DNA of 64,000 nt from the IMG/VR virus record IMGVR_UViG_3300037247_001096, positions 1 to 64,000 of that record. The stretch is one strand, 5' to 3'. The notes under the pieces were generated by a model. The model made no database searches, was not told the origin of the DNA, and saw only the letters and a list, made by a program, of their open reading frames with translations. The stretch is from a virus. Made by a program: the position numbers and the translations under genes. Shown here in pieces: positions 7,177 to 54,423 of this stretch (position 1 is the first letter of the stretch; the number at the start of each line of letters is the position of its first letter).

Positions 7177-8274
7177 CTACGCCTGTCTCACACGAACTGC
7201 ATCCCAGCTCATGCTCTTCAGGTTCTCTCTCATTGCGTCAGCGCCTGCCTCTTCAGAGAACTTCTTACCCTGGTCGACAGCACCACCCCCACCAACATCA
7301 CTCGGGGCGGAAGCCCCTGCCGGGACTCCCGGCGCGTTCGGCTGCGGCTGAGGAGCCGGAGCGGACGGAGTAGGGGTCGCTGCTACCGGCTGTGGAGCCG
7401 GTGCAGTGGCCACTTGTGGCTGGGCCGGCACTGGCGGAGGAGGCTGCACAGGGGCGACTGCCGGCTGTGCCGGGGCCTGACCCTCCTGTAGCTGCTTCTC
7501 CAAAGAAGCCGACTTCTGTTGCTCGCAGAAGAGCTCCATTTCCTCTGGAGTCTCGACTGCACCCAGGGTTTCTGGGGTCACGCCGTACTGCTTGTATTCG
7601 GCCACCAGACTGTCTACGAAGACGGTTCGGTGGTAGTTCACCAGCTCGCCTCGGTAGGAGTCTAGCTGAGCCCGTTCGTCCTGCTGAGCCCAAGTCTCCT
7701 TTGCCTTGGCTTTTTCGGCGTCCGTCAGATCACGGGTCTCAAGGTCACGAATCTGATCCGTGAGTACCTGAGACTGCGTTGTCGCCTCCTGCAACTGACG
7801 TTCGACCTGTGCATTCTGCCGGTCATGCTGGCTCTGCACAGACCTTCGCGCCTCTTCTGCCTGGTCATCAAGGAAGGTCTTTAGCCTCCCAAGAGAAGCC
7901 ACCTCTTCCTCTGGCGTTGCCTCCGGTGCACCTGCGGCTGGCGCGGTCTCCACAGGGGCCGAGGTTGTCACCGGTTGTGCCGGGGCCGCCGGCGCTGCGC
8001 CGGGAACGACCTCCACAACGGGCGGTGGCGTCGGCTCAACTACCTGTTGTGCTGCCGGCGCCGGGGGCGCTCCTGCCTGAGCTGTCGGTTGAGGTGCCGC
8101 CTCTGCTGGCTGAACCGCCGTCTCCGCTGCGGCTCCCGGCTGGGAAGCCTGCTGCGAAGGGTCGGCCTGATTCTGTGCCGTCAAAGGTCGCACTCCCTCT
8201 TTCGTCAGCTCGGCTACTTCGAGCTCTCCTAGCTTTTCTACCATTTGGGGTGTTGCTTGCGCGTCACCAGGCAT
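7177..8274 (-). CDS. Capsid scaffold protein
   Basis: 365 residues from ATG 8274 (MPGDAQATP), with AGAGGAG nine bases upstream; an earlier in-frame codon would lie inside the promoter. Two Pro/Ala/Gln-rich disordered segments (about 30-120 and 255-335) flank a long charged coiled coil (about 125-240). That is the usual build of phage scaffolds, and it sits directly before the major capsid gene. It should nucleate procapsid assembly and then leave or be degraded. Confidence 0.75.
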   Translation of the reverse strand: MPGDAQATPQMVEKLGELEVAELTKEGVRPLTAQNQADPSQQASQPGAAAETAVQPAEAAPQPTAQAGAPPAPAAQQVVEPTPPPVVEVVPGAAPAAPAQPVTTSAPVETAPAAGAPEATPEEEVASLGRLKTFLDDQAEEARRSVQSQHDRQNAQVERQLQEATTQSQVLTDQIRDLETRDLTDAEKAKAKETWAQQDERAQLDSYRGELVNYHRTVFVDSLVAEYKQYGVTPETLGAVETPEEMELFCEQQKSASLEKQLQEGQAPAQPAVAPVQPPPPVPAQPQVATAPAPQPVAATPTPSAPAPQPQPNAPGVPAGASAPSDVGGGGAVDQGKKFSEEAGADAMRENLKSMSWDAVRVRQA

Positions 8275-44249: not shown

Positions 44250-44523
44250 CTGTCAGTTCTACTCGTCGGCCGCGTCAAGCTGCCACCGCCGGCCCACCAC
44301 CCACTACTATGGGAGTGTGGAGCGTGGCCCTATGTGGTTGTGCGTGAACAAGCACCTCAAGGCGCAGGACAATCGTGACCGGGAGATGCGAGAGCAGGAA
44401 ATGGATGCGATTCTTCGGGAGAAGATGATGGCTGACGGTATTCTCCTTCAGCAAATTACAGAGGTGGCCCTGAACATGCTGGAGCCCCACCCATGGAACG
44501 GCGAGGTATATCTTGATGCCTAG
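44233..44523 (+). CDS. Unknown small protein
   Basis: 96 residues from ATG 44233, overlapping the previous gene by 17 bases. Starts with Cys/His (CQFYSSAASSCHRR, later WLCVNKH), then a charged helix RDREMREQEMDAILREKMM. Unrecognised. Confidence 0.5.
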   Translation: MIRTPSCQFYSSAASSCHRRPTTHYYGSVERGPMWLCVNKHLKAQDNRDREMREQEMDAILREKMMADGILLQQITEVALNMLEPHPWNGEVYLDA

Positions 44524-45499
44524 AGCCTACACCCCTCTGACCTCGATACGGATAGAAAACTTCCAAAGCATAAAGGCCGCCACCATCGAGCTCGGCCGGC
44601 TCACCGTTTTGGTTGGCGCCGGGGACGCGGGGAAGAGCGCCATCCTCCGTGCGTTGCGGGCAGCGTGCCTCAACGACGCTTCAGATGACGACATTCGTCA
44701 TGGGCAGAAGAAGGTCGAGGTAACCCTCACTTTTGAGGATGGCGTTACTATTGAGTGGTGGAAGCAGAAAGGGCAGGGTGGGTGCTACCGCATGACGGAC
44801 AGCGACCCCGAGCGAGTCTTCACCAAGACTGGGGGGGCCGTACCCGAGGAGATTGCTGAGTACCTAGGTATTGGTACCATCGAGGTCGACGCCACTACCG
44901 AGCTCACCCCACAACTAAGCGACCAACATGATTTGCCCTTCCTACTCTGGGAAACGGGTAGCAAACGTGCCCGCATCTTGGGGAAGGCCACTCGCCTAGA
45001 TGTCCCCATCTCGGCTCAGATGCTGTGCAAGAAGGAACTTGACCAGACCCGACGGGGTGCAGAGGACGCCACCACCGCCCTCGTGGACGTAGAGGAGCGG
45101 CTCGGCGCTCTCCCTGACTACGAGAATTTGGAGGGTCGGCTGGATGAGACCGAGGCGAACCTCAAGACTATCGACGACAACCTCAGGCTCGTCCGCCGGG
45201 CTCGGGGGCTGGCTGACCAAATCGCGGAGGTGCGCTCCCGAGCTACGGCGGTCGACGTGGCGCCTCTGCGTGCCCGGCTGGACGACGCGGCCGAGGCGTT
45301 GGAAGTGGCAGAGCGGGCGCAGTTCCTAGGCCGGCGCATCCCCGAGCTAAAGAACACGCTCACAGGTTTGACCGAGCGTGCGGCCGACCACCAAGAGGCG
45401 CTTGAGAGCTTCCTCAAGCAGTACCAGGAGGCTTGTCTCTCCTCGGGCGTGTGCCTAGTCTGCGGCGGCCTGCTCACCCATGAGGAGTGTGGTGCATGA
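44516..45499 (+). CDS. Rad50/SbcC-like ATPase, N-terminal half with zinc hook
   Basis: 327 residues from ATG 44516. IRIENFQSIKAATIELG and Walker A GAGDAGKSAILRAL near 35-45 open the ATPase; a coiled coil covers about 175-300, and the chain ends just after CLVCGG, the zinc-hook turn. The signature motif and Walker B are missing here, but appear in the separate gene at 47464-48120. So the ATPase seems to be assembled from two or three polypeptides. It works with the Mre11-like nuclease encoded next. Confidence 0.75.
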   Translation: MPRAYTPLTSIRIENFQSIKAATIELGRLTVLVGAGDAGKSAILRALRAACLNDASDDDIRHGQKKVEVTLTFEDGVTIEWWKQKGQGGCYRMTDSDPERVFTKTGGAVPEEIAEYLGIGTIEVDATTELTPQLSDQHDLPFLLWETGSKRARILGKATRLDVPISAQMLCKKELDQTRRGAEDATTALVDVEERLGALPDYENLEGRLDETEANLKTIDDNLRLVRRARGLADQIAEVRSRATAVDVAPLRARLDDAAEALEVAERAQFLGRRIPELKNTLTGLTERAADHQEALESFLKQYQEACLSSGVCLVCGGLLTHEECGA

Positions 45500-47220: not shown

Positions 47221-47471
47221 CCATCATACCAACCATCGACCAGTTGCGGAAAGACATGGACTCCGCGCGTAACGACCTAGCCCGGATTGACGGGCAGCAG
47301 CAGGGCGCCCGGGAGGAGCTGACCAAGCTGGAAGTGGAGGCCGGCGAACTAGGCATTGCCCCGGATAAGCTCAATGAGGAGGCCACCCGTATCACAGAGG
47401 ATGTATACACGGCGCTCCAGGCGGTACAGGCGGAGACCCAGGCGCTGACAAAGGAGACCACCGGTGACTGA
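47217..47471 (+). CDS. Coiled-coil protein (candidate Rad50 coil fragment)
   Basis: 84 residues from ATG 47217 (ATGA). Nearly all heptad-like helix (IDQLRKDMDSARNDLARIDG, REELTKLEVEAGEL). It directly precedes, and overlaps, the gene for the Rad50-like C-terminal half, so it may supply part of the returning coil. Confidence 0.5.
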   Translation: MTIIPTIDQLRKDMDSARNDLARIDGQQQGAREELTKLEVEAGELGIAPDKLNEEATRITEDVYTALQAVQAETQALTKETTGD

Positions 47472-48120
47472 CGTTGACCTGACCCCGCTCCGAGCTGACC
47501 TGACGGCCGTCCGCCAGCGGGTGCATGAATGGCGGGGCCAGGCCGATATGTTACACGACCAGGAAGTCCGGGAGTTAGTGCGTCAGAAATCCATGCGCGA
47601 ACGGGAAGAGCTCCTCGCAAAGGTACTAGTCGTTCTCCAGAAGCTGGAGGCCACCTGGAGGGGACGGTACGAGGCAGCCCTAGCCGCCCTAGGCAGCCAG
47701 GGGTTGAATGCCGTCTTCACTGATGCGGAGTATGAACTGCTCCTGGAGTCTACCATCAAGCGGGGTGTGTCCAGTCTCGACATCGTGCTGGTGAAGGACG
47801 GACAGCGTGTGCGGCTCAAGGGAGGAAGTGGCGGCTCGGTCGTCCAGGTCTTGGCCTACCTCCTGAGGCACCTCATGACGGTCTCCCAACGCCCCGAGCT
47901 GCGGAGGTTTGAGGCGCTCGACGAACCATTTGCAATGGTGCGGGCCGCTCAAAGGCCCGCTCTCGGCGCGATGGTGAAGGACATAACTCAGCGATTGGAT
48001 TTCCAACTCCTCTTCTCGTCAGACGAAGATGAGCTAGTGGACGCCGCTGACGTGGTAATCCTTGTCCACCCGGGCGGGAAGGTGGAGAAACTGAAGAGTG
48101 GACAGGAGGACAGAGCATGA
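47464..48120 (+). CDS. Rad50/SbcC-like ATPase, C-terminal half
   Basis: 218 residues from GTG 47464 (overlap). Starts with a coiled coil (1-75), then the ABC-type signature region LKGGSGGSVVQVLAYLLRHL near 120-139, Walker B FEALDEPFAMV near 153, and a C-terminal D-loop/H-loop region (LLFSSDEDEL). It complements the 44516-45499 protein, which has only Walker A and the hook. Confidence 0.7.
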   Translation: MTDVDLTPLRADLTAVRQRVHEWRGQADMLHDQEVRELVRQKSMREREELLAKVLVVLQKLEATWRGRYEAALAALGSQGLNAVFTDAEYELLLESTIKRGVSSLDIVLVKDGQRVRLKGGSGGSVVQVLAYLLRHLMTVSQRPELRRFEALDEPFAMVRAAQRPALGAMVKDITQRLDFQLLFSSDEDELVDAADVVILVHPGGKVEKLKSGQEDRA

Positions 48121-49154: not shown

Positions 49155-51815
49155 ATGACGGCGCCTAGAGACTGTAACCGCTGCCCTCAGTTAGCTCGGG
49201 TAAGGTCGTGTGTGGTTAACGGTTCCGGCCCGACTGAGGCCAGAATCGCAATGGTCGGCGAAGGCCCGGGTAATTACGAAGACCAGAAGAGGAGGCCCTT
49301 CGTAGGGAAGGCCGGCCGGGTACTGCGCACCATCGAGTGGGCTGCTGGTATCAACCAACACCTAGTCTACTACACCAACGCCACACGCTGTTGGGGTAAG
49401 CGAAACCCGAAGCCGGCGGAGGTGGACGCCTGCCACCATTTCCTCATTGAAGAGCTGCGGGAACTCAACCCCTCGGTCATTGTGGCGCTTGGCGGCGCCG
49501 CTCTCCGTTCCCTCTACCGCCCCGGCGTAACCGTTGGCTCGGTGATGGGCTTCACCCTATACAACGACGAGCTCCCTGGCATCCCCGTCATCCCAACCTA
49601 CCACCCCTCATACATCATGCGCGGGCATTGGGATGAGGTGGCGTTGGTACTGGCTCACTTCCGCAAGGCAAAGCGCATCGCCGAGGAAGGGGGTATCGAA
49701 GAGAAGCTGGGATCGTACATGGGTATCACCACACTAGAGGAGCTGCGGGCGCTCCGAGATTACCTACTTTCTGATGCCGTTTCTATACTGGCCCTAGATA
49801 CTGAGACTTGCGGTTTATCGTGGATGGACTCCGAACTCCTCTGCATCAGCTTCTCGGGTGAGGAGGGAGTCGGGTATAGCGTCCCCATCCTCCACCGGGG
49901 CGAGCGCACCGTCATGAAGACGAAGGGGCGGGGCAAGAACCGTAGGGAAGTGCCCGAACAGGAGTGGTGGCCTGTCCCCTACTGGGACTTGGAGAAGGAG
50001 ATGCCCGAGGTGATCAGTATCCTCGACGAAATCCTCCGCTCCGACAAACCCAAGGCGGGTCAGAACATCGGGTTTGATTTGAGAATGTTGGAGCGCCGGC
50101 CTGATGAGGCGGTGGTGACGGCCCAGACTGCACTCGGCTTCTACGTTAACAACGTACAGCACGACACCAAAATGCTGAGCTCACTACTGTCTGAGGTGAG
50201 CCCGGCCAACTTGACGGTGCTCACAGCCTACCATACGGATATGCCCTATTACGAGGCTGAGATTTCCGGGATGAAATCCAAGATGTGGCACGTCCCTGAC
50301 AAGGAATTATGGGAATACGGAGGAGCCGATGTCGATGTCGTGCAGCGGCTGGTGCCCCGGCTCTACCCCCAGGTGCAGGCTGAAAAGTCGGACTGGGTGT
50401 ACGAAAACATCAGCATCCCCCTCATCCGCTGCGCCACGAAGCTAGAGGAGCGGGGCGTCTACATCGACCAGGAGTATTTCGATAAGCTCTGCTTGTACTA
50501 CAAGGACGACCTGGCGAGGAAGAAGGCGGAGCTAAATGAGACGGTTGGGCGTGAGGTGAAGCATCCTAGCCACTACCAGCACGTACAGAAACTCGTCTTC
50601 AAAGACCTGGGCCTGCCCCTCACCGCCCAGCCCACCGATGGCGCCCGCAAGGAGTGTGACAAGTGTCGGAAGACGCAAAGTCCCTGCTCACCGGCCCATG
50701 CCTCAACATCGGCCGACGCCTTGGCGGAGTTGAACGAGCGGGCACCCCACCCGGTGCTACCTCTCCTCGTTGACATTCGCCACGTCGAGAAGTTCGGTAG
50801 TACCTACTTAGATGGGGGTGAGGGGGGTGGGTTCCGTGTTCATATTCGGGCAGACAGCCGCATTCACGGTCGCTGGACTGCCGGAGGCGCTCGGGCAACA
50901 GGGCGCTTTACTTGCGAGGAACCCGCCCTTATGACTCTACCCAAGGAAATTAGGATTCATTCGGACGAGTATGACATCCACTCTGACGATGCCATTCGCG
51001 CCATGTGCGCTGCTCCTCCAGGATACGGGGTACTCAACGCTGACTGGGGCCAGGCCGAGGTTTGGGTCATGGCCTACGAGACGGGAGATGAGACCCTCCT
51101 CAAGTTGCTGATAGATGGAACGGACATCCACGCCTACGTTGCCCGGGAGCTCTGCAAGTTGGGGGTCTCTACTAGGTTCCCCCATGAATCCGTGGATGAC
51201 ACGCTCTCCCTAGAGGAGTGGAGGAGCAAGTACAAGGAAGTGCGTGACAGGGGCAAGACCTTTGTGTTCGGGATGAACTATGGCCTAACCGACGAAGGAG
51301 CTGGCCAGCGCCTAGGCTGCTCGGCAGAGGAGGCGTCGCCACTCCTGTCACACTACATCCAGAGTATCTTTCCTTCGATGGGATCATACTTCATTCGGAT
51401 TCGTGAAGAGATGTTCCAGCGAGGGTCGGTCGCTGACCGCTTTGGGCGCCGGCGGCACTTCGCCGAGGTGCCCATCCTAGCGGCGCTGCGCTACCGGGGA
51501 GACCTGGAGGGGGCCATCCGCCAGGGGTACAACATGCCCATCCAGGGCGGGGCACACGACCTTCACTCCCTGGCGCACATCGCCACTGAGAGGGAGCTGT
51601 CGTCGTTCGTCCAGCCCGTAATTGAGATGCACGACTCCCTTGCCATGTACGCCCCTCTAGACCGACTCGAAGAGGGTGGGGCTGCTATCAAGGAGCTGTG
51701 GGGCCACGTGGCCCGAGATACCATCCTACCCTCCGGTGAGCGGCTTGCTTGGGAGATTCCCGTCGAGATACAATGGGGTAGGAGCTTTGGAGAGCTGGAG
51801 GCGCACATTGAGTAA
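49155..51815 (+). CDS. UDG-exonuclease-DNA polymerase A fusion
   Basis: 886 residues from ATG 49155. Residues 1-185 form a family 4-type uracil-DNA glycosylase: Cys 7, 10, 79 and 93 placed for a 4Fe-4S cluster, GEGPGNYED (35-43), HPS (150-152). Residues 205-400 are a 3'-5' exonuclease: LDTET (214-218), NIGFD (304-308), YGGADVD (388-394). Residues 420-886 are a polymerase: motif A NADWGQAE (629-635), motif B RDRGKTFVFGMNYG (697-710), motif C MHDSL (825-829). A CxxC...C...H insertion (501-515) may bind zinc. This is the replicative polymerase; the UDG part may screen or tolerate uracil. Similar fusions are known in some phages. Confidence 0.85.
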   Translation: MTAPRDCNRCPQLARVRSCVVNGSGPTEARIAMVGEGPGNYEDQKRRPFVGKAGRVLRTIEWAAGINQHLVYYTNATRCWGKRNPKPAEVDACHHFLIEELRELNPSVIVALGGAALRSLYRPGVTVGSVMGFTLYNDELPGIPVIPTYHPSYIMRGHWDEVALVLAHFRKAKRIAEEGGIEEKLGSYMGITTLEELRALRDYLLSDAVSILALDTETCGLSWMDSELLCISFSGEEGVGYSVPILHRGERTVMKTKGRGKNRREVPEQEWWPVPYWDLEKEMPEVISILDEILRSDKPKAGQNIGFDLRMLERRPDEAVVTAQTALGFYVNNVQHDTKMLSSLLSEVSPANLTVLTAYHTDMPYYEAEISGMKSKMWHVPDKELWEYGGADVDVVQRLVPRLYPQVQAEKSDWVYENISIPLIRCATKLEERGVYIDQEYFDKLCLYYKDDLARKKAELNETVGREVKHPSHYQHVQKLVFKDLGLPLTAQPTDGARKECDKCRKTQSPCSPAHASTSADALAELNERAPHPVLPLLVDIRHVEKFGSTYLDGGEGGGFRVHIRADSRIHGRWTAGGARATGRFTCEEPALMTLPKEIRIHSDEYDIHSDDAIRAMCAAPPGYGVLNADWGQAEVWVMAYETGDETLLKLLIDGTDIHAYVARELCKLGVSTRFPHESVDDTLSLEEWRSKYKEVRDRGKTFVFGMNYGLTDEGAGQRLGCSAEEASPLLSHYIQSIFPSMGSYFIRIREEMFQRGSVADRFGRRRHFAEVPILAALRYRGDLEGAIRQGYNMPIQGGAHDLHSLAHIATERELSSFVQPVIEMHDSLAMYAPLDRLEEGGAAIKELWGHVARDTILPSGERLAWEIPVEIQWGRSFGELEAHIE

Positions 51816-51960
51816 CCACCGACCCCCACGCCACCTCGAATGCGGGCGGCTGCATTGGCCGGGAGCGTGCCCCCAGGAAATCGGTTTGAAGATACGCATT
51901 TGGGATAAACTCTCAACACTGGCAGAGTGGGTGCACCCTGAAAGGAATGGTCATGAGTGA
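51808..51960 (+). CDS. 50-residue protein after the polymerase
   Basis: TTG 51808 with GGAGG six bases upstream, inside the last polymerase codons. SNHRPPRHLECGRLHWPGAC, then LKIRIWDKLSTLAEWVHPE. Cys/His-rich first half. Overlaps the next gene. Confidence 0.5.
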   Translation: MSNHRPPRHLECGRLHWPGACPQEIGLKIRIWDKLSTLAEWVHPERNGHE

Positions 51961-52594
51961 CGACAATGCCCTTGTCCCATCAGACGGCCGCACGGCCGCC
52001 CGTGTCCGAGGGGAGGATGGGCTACTCCCTGCTCAGCGAGAGTACCTTGCGGTATACTCAGATACGGGTTCGCCTGCGGAAGCCTTACGCCGGCTCCGCC
52101 TCACGCAAGCCCGAGTCACCCGCTGGCTCCGAGAAGACCCCGCCTTCCTCAGAGTCCACGAAGACCTCTTCAAGGGATCTTACAATGCGACTAAGGCGCG
52201 GTTCGGGGCGCTTCAGGAGCGGCTGCCTGACCTGGCACTAGACCTCATGCAGGCCCATAAAGTGGTAGTGGTAAAGCATATCTGCACCGAGTGCGGTAAC
52301 AAGCAGGACGTGGCGGTGGACACTACGAACGATACAGTACGTGCACGGATGTGGTCTGACCTGATGAAGGCAGCGGGTCACCTCAAGGACGTGCGCCGGA
52401 TAGAGGGCGACATGCTCACTACCCACTTCACTGCCGGGCAGCGCATCGCCCTGGAGAGACTGAGGCGTGGTGGTGACATCAGTGTTCAGCAATATAAAGA
52501 GCTGGAATCTATGGGCGCTCTCGAAGACTTGAAGAGGTACGACGGCTCGGGGGTGGTGGAAGACGAAGTTGCCGATGCCGCAAATGGCCTGTAA
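51953..52594 (+). CDS. Terminase small subunit-like DNA-binding protein
   Basis: 213 residues from ATG 51953 (AAAGGA seven bases upstream). LPAQREYLAVYSDTGSPAEALRRLRLTQARVTRWLREDPAFLRVHED is the HTH layout of phage small terminase subunits; then a CTECG-x(18)-WSDLMKAAGHLKDV part and a helical C-terminus. If correct, packaging recognition is encoded in the rightward arm, far from the large subunit. A transcription role is the alternative. Confidence 0.6.
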   Translation: MSDDNALVPSDGRTAARVRGEDGLLPAQREYLAVYSDTGSPAEALRRLRLTQARVTRWLREDPAFLRVHEDLFKGSYNATKARFGALQERLPDLALDLMQAHKVVVVKHICTECGNKQDVAVDTTNDTVRARMWSDLMKAAGHLKDVRRIEGDMLTTHFTAGQRIALERLRRGGDISVQQYKELESMGALEDLKRYDGSGVVEDEVADAANGL

Positions 52595-52640
52595 TGTACA
52601 ATAGATAATTCCGTTGTAGGTAGTGAAAGGAAGGTGCATC

Positions 52641-52868
52641 ATGGCATTCCTACCGGTAGTCTCATCCACATTGACCGCAGTGAAGTACGACCGGGAACGA
52701 GGCCGGTTGGTCATCCAGTTCCCCGGTGAGAGCTTCTACGAGTACGATGGAGTCCCGGGGGAGGTGGTGCTCGACTTCCTCTTCTCCGACTCTATTGGTG
52801 GCGCGTTCAGCACTCTCATGAAAAAGGGAGGATTCCAGTACCGTCGCATCGCAGCTAAGGACGCCTAG
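52641..52868 (+). CDS. KTSC-domain protein
   Basis: 75 residues from ATG 52641 (GGAAGGTGCATCATG). SSTLTAVKYDRERGRLVIQF, YEYDGVPGEVVLDFLFSDSIGGAFSTLMKKG matches the KTSC domain (S-x-I-x-V-Y-x(7)-L-x-I-x-F, Y-x-VP). The role of KTSC in phages is unclear. Confidence 0.75.
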   Translation: MAFLPVVSSTLTAVKYDRERGRLVIQFPGESFYEYDGVPGEVVLDFLFSDSIGGAFSTLMKKGGFQYRRIAAKDA

Positions 52869-52879
52869 GGAGGGCCTTG

Positions 52880-53173
52880 ATGGTATGGGAAAACGAAAAC
52901 GGAAGCGACGTACAAAAGTGGCCCACGTGGAGCACCCGCCGAAACTGGGCGCGAAACAACTATCTGAAGTACGGCATCCAGTGGAAGCTCCAGAAGTTCC
53001 TGGTGATGCTGGCGAACCTGACGGTGCTGAACGACCTGATAGAGGAGGAGGGCGGGGAGGTGCTGCTGACGCCCAAACAGAGGAGGGAGTGGAAGGGGTG
53101 GTACGAATCATTTCGACCGACCCATCCAGTGGGCCGTCCGAAGAGCGACTCGGGGAGTGGCCATACAGAATAG
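52880..53173 (+). CDS. Helical protein overlapping the next gene
   Basis: 97 residues from ATG 52880 (GGGAGG upstream). Trp-rich start, then WKLQKFLVMLANLTVLNDLIEE and TPKQRREWKGWYESF. Codon third positions in this frame are G/C-rich, so this is the coding frame for 52880-53097 rather than the open frame beginning at 52885. Unrecognised. Confidence 0.6.
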   Translation: MVWENENGSDVQKWPTWSTRRNWARNNYLKYGIQWKLQKFLVMLANLTVLNDLIEEEGGEVLLTPKQRREWKGWYESFRPTHPVGRPKSDSGSGHTE

Positions 53174-54423
53174 TCAAGACCCCTGAAGACCTACTTGCCT
53201 TGGGAGAGTGGCTCCAGGTACTGGGGGGCGAGGTCGAAAAGACCCCGGTGGGTATCGCCGCCACCAGCAGTGAGCTGGCTCTGGCGACGAAGGCTCAGGG
53301 GTGGCTACTCCGCGCCGACGTTGACCCAGAGACCCATGCTAGACTCGCGGGTAGTGCGGGCCATGCTGTCCTTCGCAAACTACTCACAGCGGAGCGTACA
53401 GCGCCGGCCCTGGTGACCCGGGATACGGGTTACCTCATCACTGCCTTAGAAAACTGGTTGGGAGATTACGACCGCAATGCTCTCTTGCCCAACATCGTCC
53501 ACGATATGAAGGTATTGGAGTACGTGACTGGTCGAGGTATTGCCGTGGGTATGACGGCCCTCAAGGATGCTTTGGACTGTGCCGTCGTAGGGCCTGGGAT
53601 GGCGCTAGAGGCCCCACGCTTCTACCAGCAGGTGGGTATGCCCCTAGCGCGTCACAATGCGCAGACACATGTCATCTACGTAGACCCCGAGGTACCCGCG
53701 CAAGCGGCTGGGGCTAAGCCGTGGAGCCGCTGGACGCTCACCTACGATTACCTGCTGTTCCGGGTGCTGGCCCACTACACACGCGACCCCACGATGACCC
53801 GATGGTTCGAGGAGGGTAGAAGCCCCCTACAGGAGTTCAGTAGCTACCTGGAACTCAACTCGAAAGAGGCCACAGCATTCCTCTTGTGGATGGTCTGCGG
53901 TGAGGAGGAGGAGCTTGTCAGCCGGTACTACCCCGACTGGGCCACCCTCATGCCAGAGGCACCTCAGCTTATCAAGGCGTCCCGAGTTGACAAGACCCTT
54001 CCCAACCTACGCCTGGGGCTCATCAGGCTGACCGATCAGTACGCCATCTCCCGCAAGACCGAGACTTTGTACGGGCGCCGCTCACCGTGGGGCCTGAAGC
54101 CTCAGGAGCTCCTGCACTTCGTCATCATGGGGTCGGTGAATGACCTTTTAGATGTCGTAGTGGCGTCCATCATCAGGCTGGGAAGTGACGCGCATTGGCT
54201 AGTCCCAGAGGCCAGCACGAAATACAACCACTGGTTAAGAGCACAGGTTGTTGGCTATAGTAAAGAGGAGCCTATGGATTGGCAGCGAAAATTGGAAGAA
54301 CTCGGGCAGCTCAACAACCCTCTGGGAGCGGTCTCCCTTGAACCGAGAGTGAGTGTCGAAGTTGCACGGCGTGGCGTCGATACCCTCCGCGCCCGCATCA
54401 AGGAGCTGGGAGGTGAGGAATGA
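53098..54423 (+). CDS. Degenerate family A DNA polymerase-like protein
   Basis: 441 residues from GTG 53098 (AGGAGG upstream); an in-frame ATG at 52885 is possible but its N-terminus is low complexity and overlaps another coding frame. Exonuclease-like remnants: NIVHDMKVL near 132. Polymerase-like: YDYLLFRVLAHYTRDPTM near 216-233 aligns with motif A and its following helix but lacks the SQIE part; the motif B finger region seems deleted; TETLYGRR (321-328) and FVIMGSVNDLLDVV align with the later fingers/palm; motif C HDE is replaced by AHWLVPE. It should be catalytically inactive, perhaps an accessory subunit. Confidence 0.6.
   Translation: MVRIISTDPSSGPSEERLGEWPYRIVKTPEDLLALGEWLQVLGGEVEKTPVGIAATSSELALATKAQGWLLRADVDPETHARLAGSAGHAVLRKLLTAERTAPALVTRDTGYLITALENWLGDYDRNALLPNIVHDMKVLEYVTGRGIAVGMTALKDALDCAVVGPGMALEAPRFYQQVGMPLARHNAQTHVIYVDPEVPAQAAGAKPWSRWTLTYDYLLFRVLAHYTRDPTMTRWFEEGRSPLQEFSSYLELNSKEATAFLLWMVCGEEEELVSRYYPDWATLMPEAPQLIKASRVDKTLPNLRLGLIRLTDQYAISRKTETLYGRRSPWGLKPQELLHFVIMGSVNDLLDVVVASIIRLGSDAHWLVPEASTKYNHWLRAQVVGYSKEEPMDWQRKLEELGQLNNPLGAVSLEPRVSVEVARRGVDTLRARIKELGGEE

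What the first reader, a model, noticed from the sequence alone, without database searches (positions are those of the whole stretch)
53098..54423. A second, apparently inactive family A polymerase beside the active one
The 441-residue protein keeps recognisable stretches (DYLLFRVLAHYTRDP after motif A, TETLYGRR, GSVNDLLDVV) in the right order, but lacks the SQIE part of motif A, the motif B finger segment and the motif C Asp. Exonuclease residues are also lost. This looks like a duplicated polymerase turned into a non-catalytic subunit, lying within 1.3 kb of the active fusion polymerase.
Basis: partly seen in the sequence, partly recalled or inferred. Interest (0 to 1): 0.75.

Follow-up and report, generated by a model that had tools for sequence, protein, structure and literature searches.

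The report
Inactivated family A polymerase homologue
This uncultivated phage and its relatives carry, in the same operon as their working DNA polymerase, a second protein with the remains of a polymerase I fold but none of the residues needed to copy DNA, and evolution has kept it, which suggests a non-catalytic helper of replication.

Summary
Window 53098-54423 (more likely 52885-54423, 512 aa) encodes a protein that simple database searches do not recognise. Predicted structures match Klenow fragment best (Foldseek E 1.6e-8; all 50 listed PDB hits are family A DNA polymerases). A profile of 9 relatives aligns to phage PolA over fingers/palm at probability 92% (score 62; shuffled controls reach at most 28). 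In 13 distinct phage contigs the motif A Asp is always T/N/S, the Glu is L/I/W/F, the motif B set is lost, motif C His-Asp is absent, and the thumb is missing. It is no pseudogene: dN/dS is 0.14-0.16 in the closest pairs, and gene order is kept down to 25% identity. Two corrections: a degenerate motif B helix is present, and the protein resembles other phage PolAs more than its neighbour, so descent from the neighbouring polymerase is not supported. Best guess: a non-catalytic subunit of the phage replisome, analogous to the dead half of Pol epsilon or ImuB; no partner or function was shown. Closest described kin are divPolA1 proteins, whose palm is intact. I found no inactivated family A palm described in the papers searched.

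The parts
52885..54423 (+). Residue numbers below are those of the 441-aa form
52885..53097 (+). Basic (MGKRKRKRRTK...) and then low-complexity N-terminal tail; a Lys/Arg-rich start is shared by L002, L004, L005, L006, L007 and L030; absent in the L012/L015/L013 group
53158..53664 (+). 3'-5' exonuclease-like domain (about residues 21-189), beta-alpha-beta-beta-beta-alpha-beta-alpha order as in DnaQ-like folds; ExoI acids absent. Supported by predicted structure only
53725..53805 (+). Former motif A (residues 210-236, SRWTLTYDYLLFRVLAHYTRDPTMTRW): catalytic Asp replaced by Thr215, Glu by Leu220
53860..53901 (+). Former motif B / O helix (residues 255-268, SKEATAFLLWMVCG): Arg, Lys, Phe and Tyr replaced by S, T, L and C; invariant Trp264
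54052..54078 (+). Retained T-L-Y-G-R loop (residues 319-327)
54115..54180 (+). Former N-x-P-x-Q-G-x-x-x-D helix (residues 340-361, HFVIMGSVNDLLDVVVASIIRL); Gly345 and Asp349 invariant; motif C His-Asp does not follow
52880..53173 (+). 98-aa frame lying across the 5' end of iPolA, start codon 5 bases upstream; both frames appear constrained, so probably an overlapping gene (not itself polymerase-like)
49155..51815 (+). Neighbouring intact UDG-exonuclease-PolA fusion polymerase (886 aa): D630, E635, R697, K701, Y709 and HD 826-827 present
51947..52594 (+). Conserved gene of unknown function (215 aa), upstream of iPolA in all 13 contigs that carry iPolA
52623..52868 (+). KTSC-domain protein, directly upstream in the window's clade and in L030

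Best explanation
The gene encodes a catalytically dead homologue of family A DNA polymerases. It keeps the fingers and part of the palm and, by its predicted structure, a degenerate exonuclease-like domain, but has lost the metal-binding aspartates, the nucleotide-binding residues of the O helix and the thumb (shown or well supported by computation). It is retained under purifying selection in the replication operon of a clade of uncultivated phages (shown). Most likely it acts as a structural or assembly subunit of the phage replisome, binding the active UDG-PolA polymerase or a neighbouring replication factor, perhaps through the surface that once was the active-site cleft, now hydrophobic with an invariant Trp (inferred). 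This would parallel the dead C-terminal half of Pol epsilon and ImuB. The identity is about 0.93 likely and the subunit role about 0.55; the confidence below is for the whole.
For: Two AlphaFold2 models (mean pLDDT 72 and 74, pTM 0.70 and 0.69) match Klenow fragment best, E 1.0e-6 and 1.6e-8, and the 50 listed PDB hits are all family A DNA polymerases (viral library). Profile-profile alignment to 18 phage PolAs: probability 91.9, score 62.2, collinear over motif A, O helix, GR loop and QG helix, against at most 28 in shuffled controls. The most distant homologue, L030, hits only DNA polymerases among annotated phage records (12 of 12, plus one unannotated record) and only Taq polymerase in PDB, and its only Pfam hit is DNA_pol_A (E 0.073); each of these is weak alone. 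Catalytic positions are lost in all 13 members. dN/dS 0.164 at dS 0.48 and 0.143 at dS 0.42. Same order, polymerase then the 215-aa gene then iPolA, in all 13 contigs. The operon also holds a DnaB-like helicase, a primase, a UvsX-like recombinase, Rad50/Mre11-like proteins and a RusA-like resolvase.
Against: In the L012/L013/L015 group other genes separate the two and the tighter link is to the 215-aa gene, which may be the real partner. Co-inheritance within a conserved operon does not by itself show a shared complex. The exonuclease-like domain has no sequence support (hhalign probability 0.4). The C-terminal region where motif C would lie is modelled with low confidence.
Confidence: 0.6

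Rival explanations
1. A polymerase-derived DNA-binding or recombination factor that works independently of the phage polymerase, for example by holding primer or template ends with its basic tail and remaining fingers.
For: Lys/Arg-rich N-terminus in the window's clade and L030; lies among recombination genes as well as replication genes; tighter linkage to the 215-aa gene than to the polymerase in distant contigs.
Against: The thumb, which grips primer-template DNA in PolA, is gone; the basic tail is absent in the L012 group.
Confidence: 0.25
2. A decoy or inhibitor of a host protein, using polymerase mimicry to bind a host clamp, a Pol I partner or a defence protein.
For: Dead mimics are a common viral strategy (general knowledge); faster evolution than the polymerase (25-28% against 39-44% identity between clades).
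Against: Constant placement in the replication operon and strong purifying selection.
Confidence: 0.08
3. An active enzyme with a relocated or different active site (polymerase, primase-like or nuclease).
For: Some invariant polar residues remain (D136, R319, R327, D349), and an Asp follows motif A at 217 or 218.
Against: That Asp is not at a constant column, and no second acidic residue stands in place of motif C in all members.
Confidence: 0.06
4. A decaying pseudogene copy of a polymerase.
For: Loss of all catalytic residues and of the thumb.
Against: Open in 13 contigs, dN/dS 0.14-0.16 in the closest pairs, invariant residues down to 25% identity.
Confidence: 0.01

Closest known systems
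divPolA1 of Flavobacterium phage immuto and related phages (PMC11348598)
   Same: Second, divergent PolA beside a regular phage polymerase; exonuclease domain inactivated; thumb truncated; replication-gene neighbourhood
   Different: divPolA1 keeps the palm catalytic residues and was judged to be an active polymerase; iPolA has lost them. Direct sequence comparison could not be made (MK892584 not in the collection)
[quoted passage not shown]
   Same: Both exonuclease and polymerase sites dead; fold kept; works in concert with an active polymerase; [quoted passage not shown]
   Different: Family B, fused to the active half, eukaryotic
ImuB, catalytically inactive Y-family protein (described in PMC12926913)
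   Same: Dead polymerase homologue that serves an active polymerase (DnaE2)
   Different: Family Y; bacterial mutasome with ImuA and DnaE2
Family A DNA polymerases (Klenow fragment, T5 and other phage PolA; Pfam PF00476)
   Same: Predicted fold; order of motif A, O helix, GR loop and QG helix
   Different: All catalytic residues and the thumb lost; below the Pfam gathering score

Membership tests
Family A DNA polymerase fold (homology) | Fingers/palm fold matching Klenow as best structural hit | tested here: met
   Foldseek E 1.0e-6 and 1.6e-8, all 50 listed PDB hits family A
Family A DNA polymerase fold (homology) | Significant profile-profile similarity, motifs collinear | tested here: met
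   Probability 91.9, score 62.2 against at most 28 in shuffles
Family A DNA polymerase fold (homology) | Pfam PF00476 above gathering score | tested here: not met
   No hit for P0001; best member L030 12.4 bits against a cut-off of 34.3
Active family A DNA polymerase | Motif A Asp (D630 in the neighbour) | tested here: not met
   T/N/S in 13 of 13 members
Active family A DNA polymerase | Motif B R...K...F..Y | tested here: not met
   Lys or Arg only in the L012/L015/L013 group; Tyr replaced by C/T in all
Active family A DNA polymerase | Motif C His-Asp | tested here: not met
   No HD in the C-terminal segment of any member
Active family A DNA polymerase | Thumb subdomain between exonuclease and motif A | tested here: not met
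   About 25 residues between the last exonuclease-like helix and the motif A position, against about 220 between exonuclease domain and motif A in the neighbour
DEDDy 3'-5' exonuclease (DnaQ-like) | DxE, N..xD and Y..xD acidic residues | tested here: not met
   ExoI position has no conserved acids in the window's clade; no full set conserved family-wide
DEDDy 3'-5' exonuclease (DnaQ-like) | Fold | tested here: inconclusive
   Predicted topology and full-length Klenow alignment agree, but the sequence profile finds nothing
divPolA1 | Intact palm catalytic residues with truncated thumb and dead exonuclease | tested here: not met
   Thumb and exonuclease agree, palm residues do not (definition from PMC11348598)
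Inactivated polymerase subunit (as Pol epsilon C-half, ImuB) | Physical association with an active polymerase | not testable with these tools
   Complex prediction unavailable; only synteny
Inactivated polymerase subunit (as Pol epsilon C-half, ImuB) | Maintained by purifying selection beside an active polymerase | tested here: met

The most novel reading that the evidence does not exclude
A family of dead family A polymerases that act as an obligatory structural subunit of a phage replisome, acquired from a polymerase lineage other than that of the active partner: a family A counterpart of the dead half of Pol epsilon, not described in the papers searched.
Probability: 0.4. Interest if true: 0.75.

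Novelty: new variant of a known kind. Interest (0 to 1): 0.62.

Why it matters
Dead polymerase homologues are known in families B and Y and serve in replication and mutagenic complexes; I found no family A example with a dead palm described. A phage version, small and beside a single active polymerase, would be a simple system in which to ask what a polymerase fold does once it no longer copies DNA, and whether phage PolA replicases have accessory subunits that sequence searches miss. It also shows a gene that routine annotation would leave as hypothetical.

Tried and rejected
Pairwise BLASTP with the neighbouring polymerase, Pfam and PHROGs scans and a phmmer search of PDB found nothing usable. 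The first hhalign, against the neighbour's own narrow family, gave probability 1.4, although in the right register; only a diverse PolA profile resolved it. Searches of cultured phages and pattern-based scans of GTDB genome contigs found no homologue. A single-subunit RNA polymerase was dropped because none is among the 50 listed PDB hits of either model. A pseudogene was dropped on dN/dS. Descent from the neighbouring polymerase was dropped, though at this divergence no tree can settle it. MK892584 (divPolA1) could not be fetched; Czernecki et al. 2023 was not held. Literature searches for inactivated PolA returned nothing relevant.

Full report
What is there. The frame 53098-54423 is open from GTG to stop. 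It follows an intact 886-residue polymerase, 49155-51815, which carries uracil-DNA glycosylase, 3'-5' exonuclease and family A polymerase domains (Pfam E 5e-26, 5e-8 and 3e-43) and all key residues (D630, E635, R697, K701, Y709, H826-D827). The window lies in a 73,133-base virus record.

Relatives. Simple searches with the protein find nothing usable in Pfam, PHROGs, PDB or 50,697 phage records. Scans of IMG/VR found eight relatives at 55-72% identity, and a check of loci that encode related polymerases uncovered four distant ones, L012, L013, L015 and L030, at 25-31%. With the window this makes 13 distinct contigs. None was found in 84,980 GTDB species genomes by the pattern-based scan.

Is it a family A polymerase homologue? 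Two AlphaFold2 runs on shallow alignments gave mean pLDDT 72 and 74. Foldseek against PDB placed Klenow fragment first in both, E 1.0e-6 and 1.6e-8, and the 50 hits listed in each were all family A DNA polymerases; in the viral library the named hits at the top are also family A polymerases. TM-scores are moderate (about 0.5) and rmsd large, as may be expected for a divergent multidomain protein. Independently of structure, a profile of nine family members was compared by hhalign with 18 phage PolAs: probability 91.9, score 62.2, against maxima of 22 and 28 in two sets of 60 column shuffles and 13 for the reversed profile. The alignment runs from motif A through the O helix and GR loop to the QG helix. 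Without L030 the score is 52.6, and the far members alone give 55.3. Single-sequence evidence from L030 agrees though none is significant alone: its only Pfam hit is DNA_pol_A (E 0.073), all its PDB matches are Taq polymerase, and all 12 annotated phage matches at E up to 10 are DNA polymerases.

Is it dead? Against the neighbour, the catalytic Asp of motif A is T/N/S in 13 of 13 members, the following Glu is L/I/W/F, and the O-helix Tyr is C or T. The O-helix Lys survives only as K or R in the L012 group. An invariant Trp replaces the Gly of the F-G pair. No His-Asp occurs where motif C should be. The predicted exonuclease-like domain (residues 21-189) has the right order of strands and helices, but this rests on the model: its sequence profile matches nothing. 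The ExoI acids are missing in the window's clade. Only about 25 residues separate this domain from motif A, so the thumb and the adjoining palm segment are gone.

Is it maintained? In the two closest pairs dN/dS is 0.164 (dS 0.48) and 0.143 (dS 0.42); for the polymerase the same pairs give 0.111 and 0.057. Gene order polymerase - 215-aa gene - (KTSC) - iPolA holds in every contig that carries the gene. Four polymerase contigs lack it, three because they end first (L019, L024, L029); L028 runs 3 kb past the 215-aa gene, through a methyltransferase-like gene, without it before the contig ends, so one absence is possible. Upstream lie a DnaB-like helicase, a primase, a UvsX-like recombinase, Rad50- and Mre11-like proteins and a RusA-like resolvase.

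Start and overlap. Relatives share a Lys/Arg-rich start that corresponds to ATG 52885 in the window, after an SD-like GGGAGGG; L030 starts the same way. A 98-aa frame starts 5 bases earlier, at 52880, and overlaps the first 96 codons. In this overlap the synonymous difference of the iPolA frame is well below that in the body for every pair (for example 0.08 against 0.37, 0.24 against 0.80), so both frames appear to be coding. The 441-aa form from GTG 53098 cannot be excluded; an SD-like GGAGG precedes it too.

Origin. The profile scores 58 against other phage PolAs and 28.5 against the neighbour's own family; random sets of four other PolAs score 35-66. The residual motif (YSDLFLRVLAHFT in L030) looks like the canonical DYSQIELRVLAH type; the neighbour's (DWGQAEVWVMAYET) does not. 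This argues against a copy of the neighbour and for a different donor, but the divergence forbids a tree.

How it may work. Inference only: the catalytic cleft has become hydrophobic (LLWMVCG with invariant Trp), which suits a packing or binding surface better than a nucleotide site; linkage suggests a partner among the active polymerase and the 215-aa protein. Literature on dead family B and Y polymerases (PMC2669801, PMC7544198, PMC12926913) offers the model of an assembly subunit. Closest in family A is divPolA1 (PMC11348598): dead exonuclease, truncated thumb, but active palm. I found no published inactivated PolA palm, with the limit that only open-licence papers were searched.

Noticed in passing
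window 52880-53173 against 52885-54423: Two genes overlap over 96 codons with start codons 5 bases apart; synonymous change in the iPolA frame is suppressed in the overlap, and a similar second frame seems present in L030.
   Followed up: partly
L013 16593-18611 (also L026 16953-19124), residues 167-428: The homologue carries what looks like an intein (Cys start, His-Asn end followed by Cys, LAGLIDADG-like stretch; weak Pfam Intein_splicing hit E 0.14). Inteins usually sit in important replication proteins.
   Followed up: partly
L001 7503-9227: An HNH endonuclease-like sequence is inserted in frame between the N-terminal tail and the body of iPolA; the tail remains as a separate 74-aa frame (7282-7506).
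   Followed up: no
L030 8980-12468: The polymerase frame is 1,163 residues long with only 676 aligned, suggesting an intein or other insertion.
   Followed up: no
window 44513-45499 and 47464-48120: A Rad50/SbcC-like ATPase appears split into N- and C-terminal genes with the Mre11-like gene between them; the arrangement is conserved in close relatives.
   Followed up: partly
window 49155-51815: A uracil-DNA glycosylase domain is fused to the N-terminus of the family A polymerase and kept in the relatives aligned.
   Followed up: partly
L028 15404-16558: A cytosine DNA methyltransferase-like gene lies where iPolA would be expected, and no iPolA was found before the contig end.
   Followed up: partly
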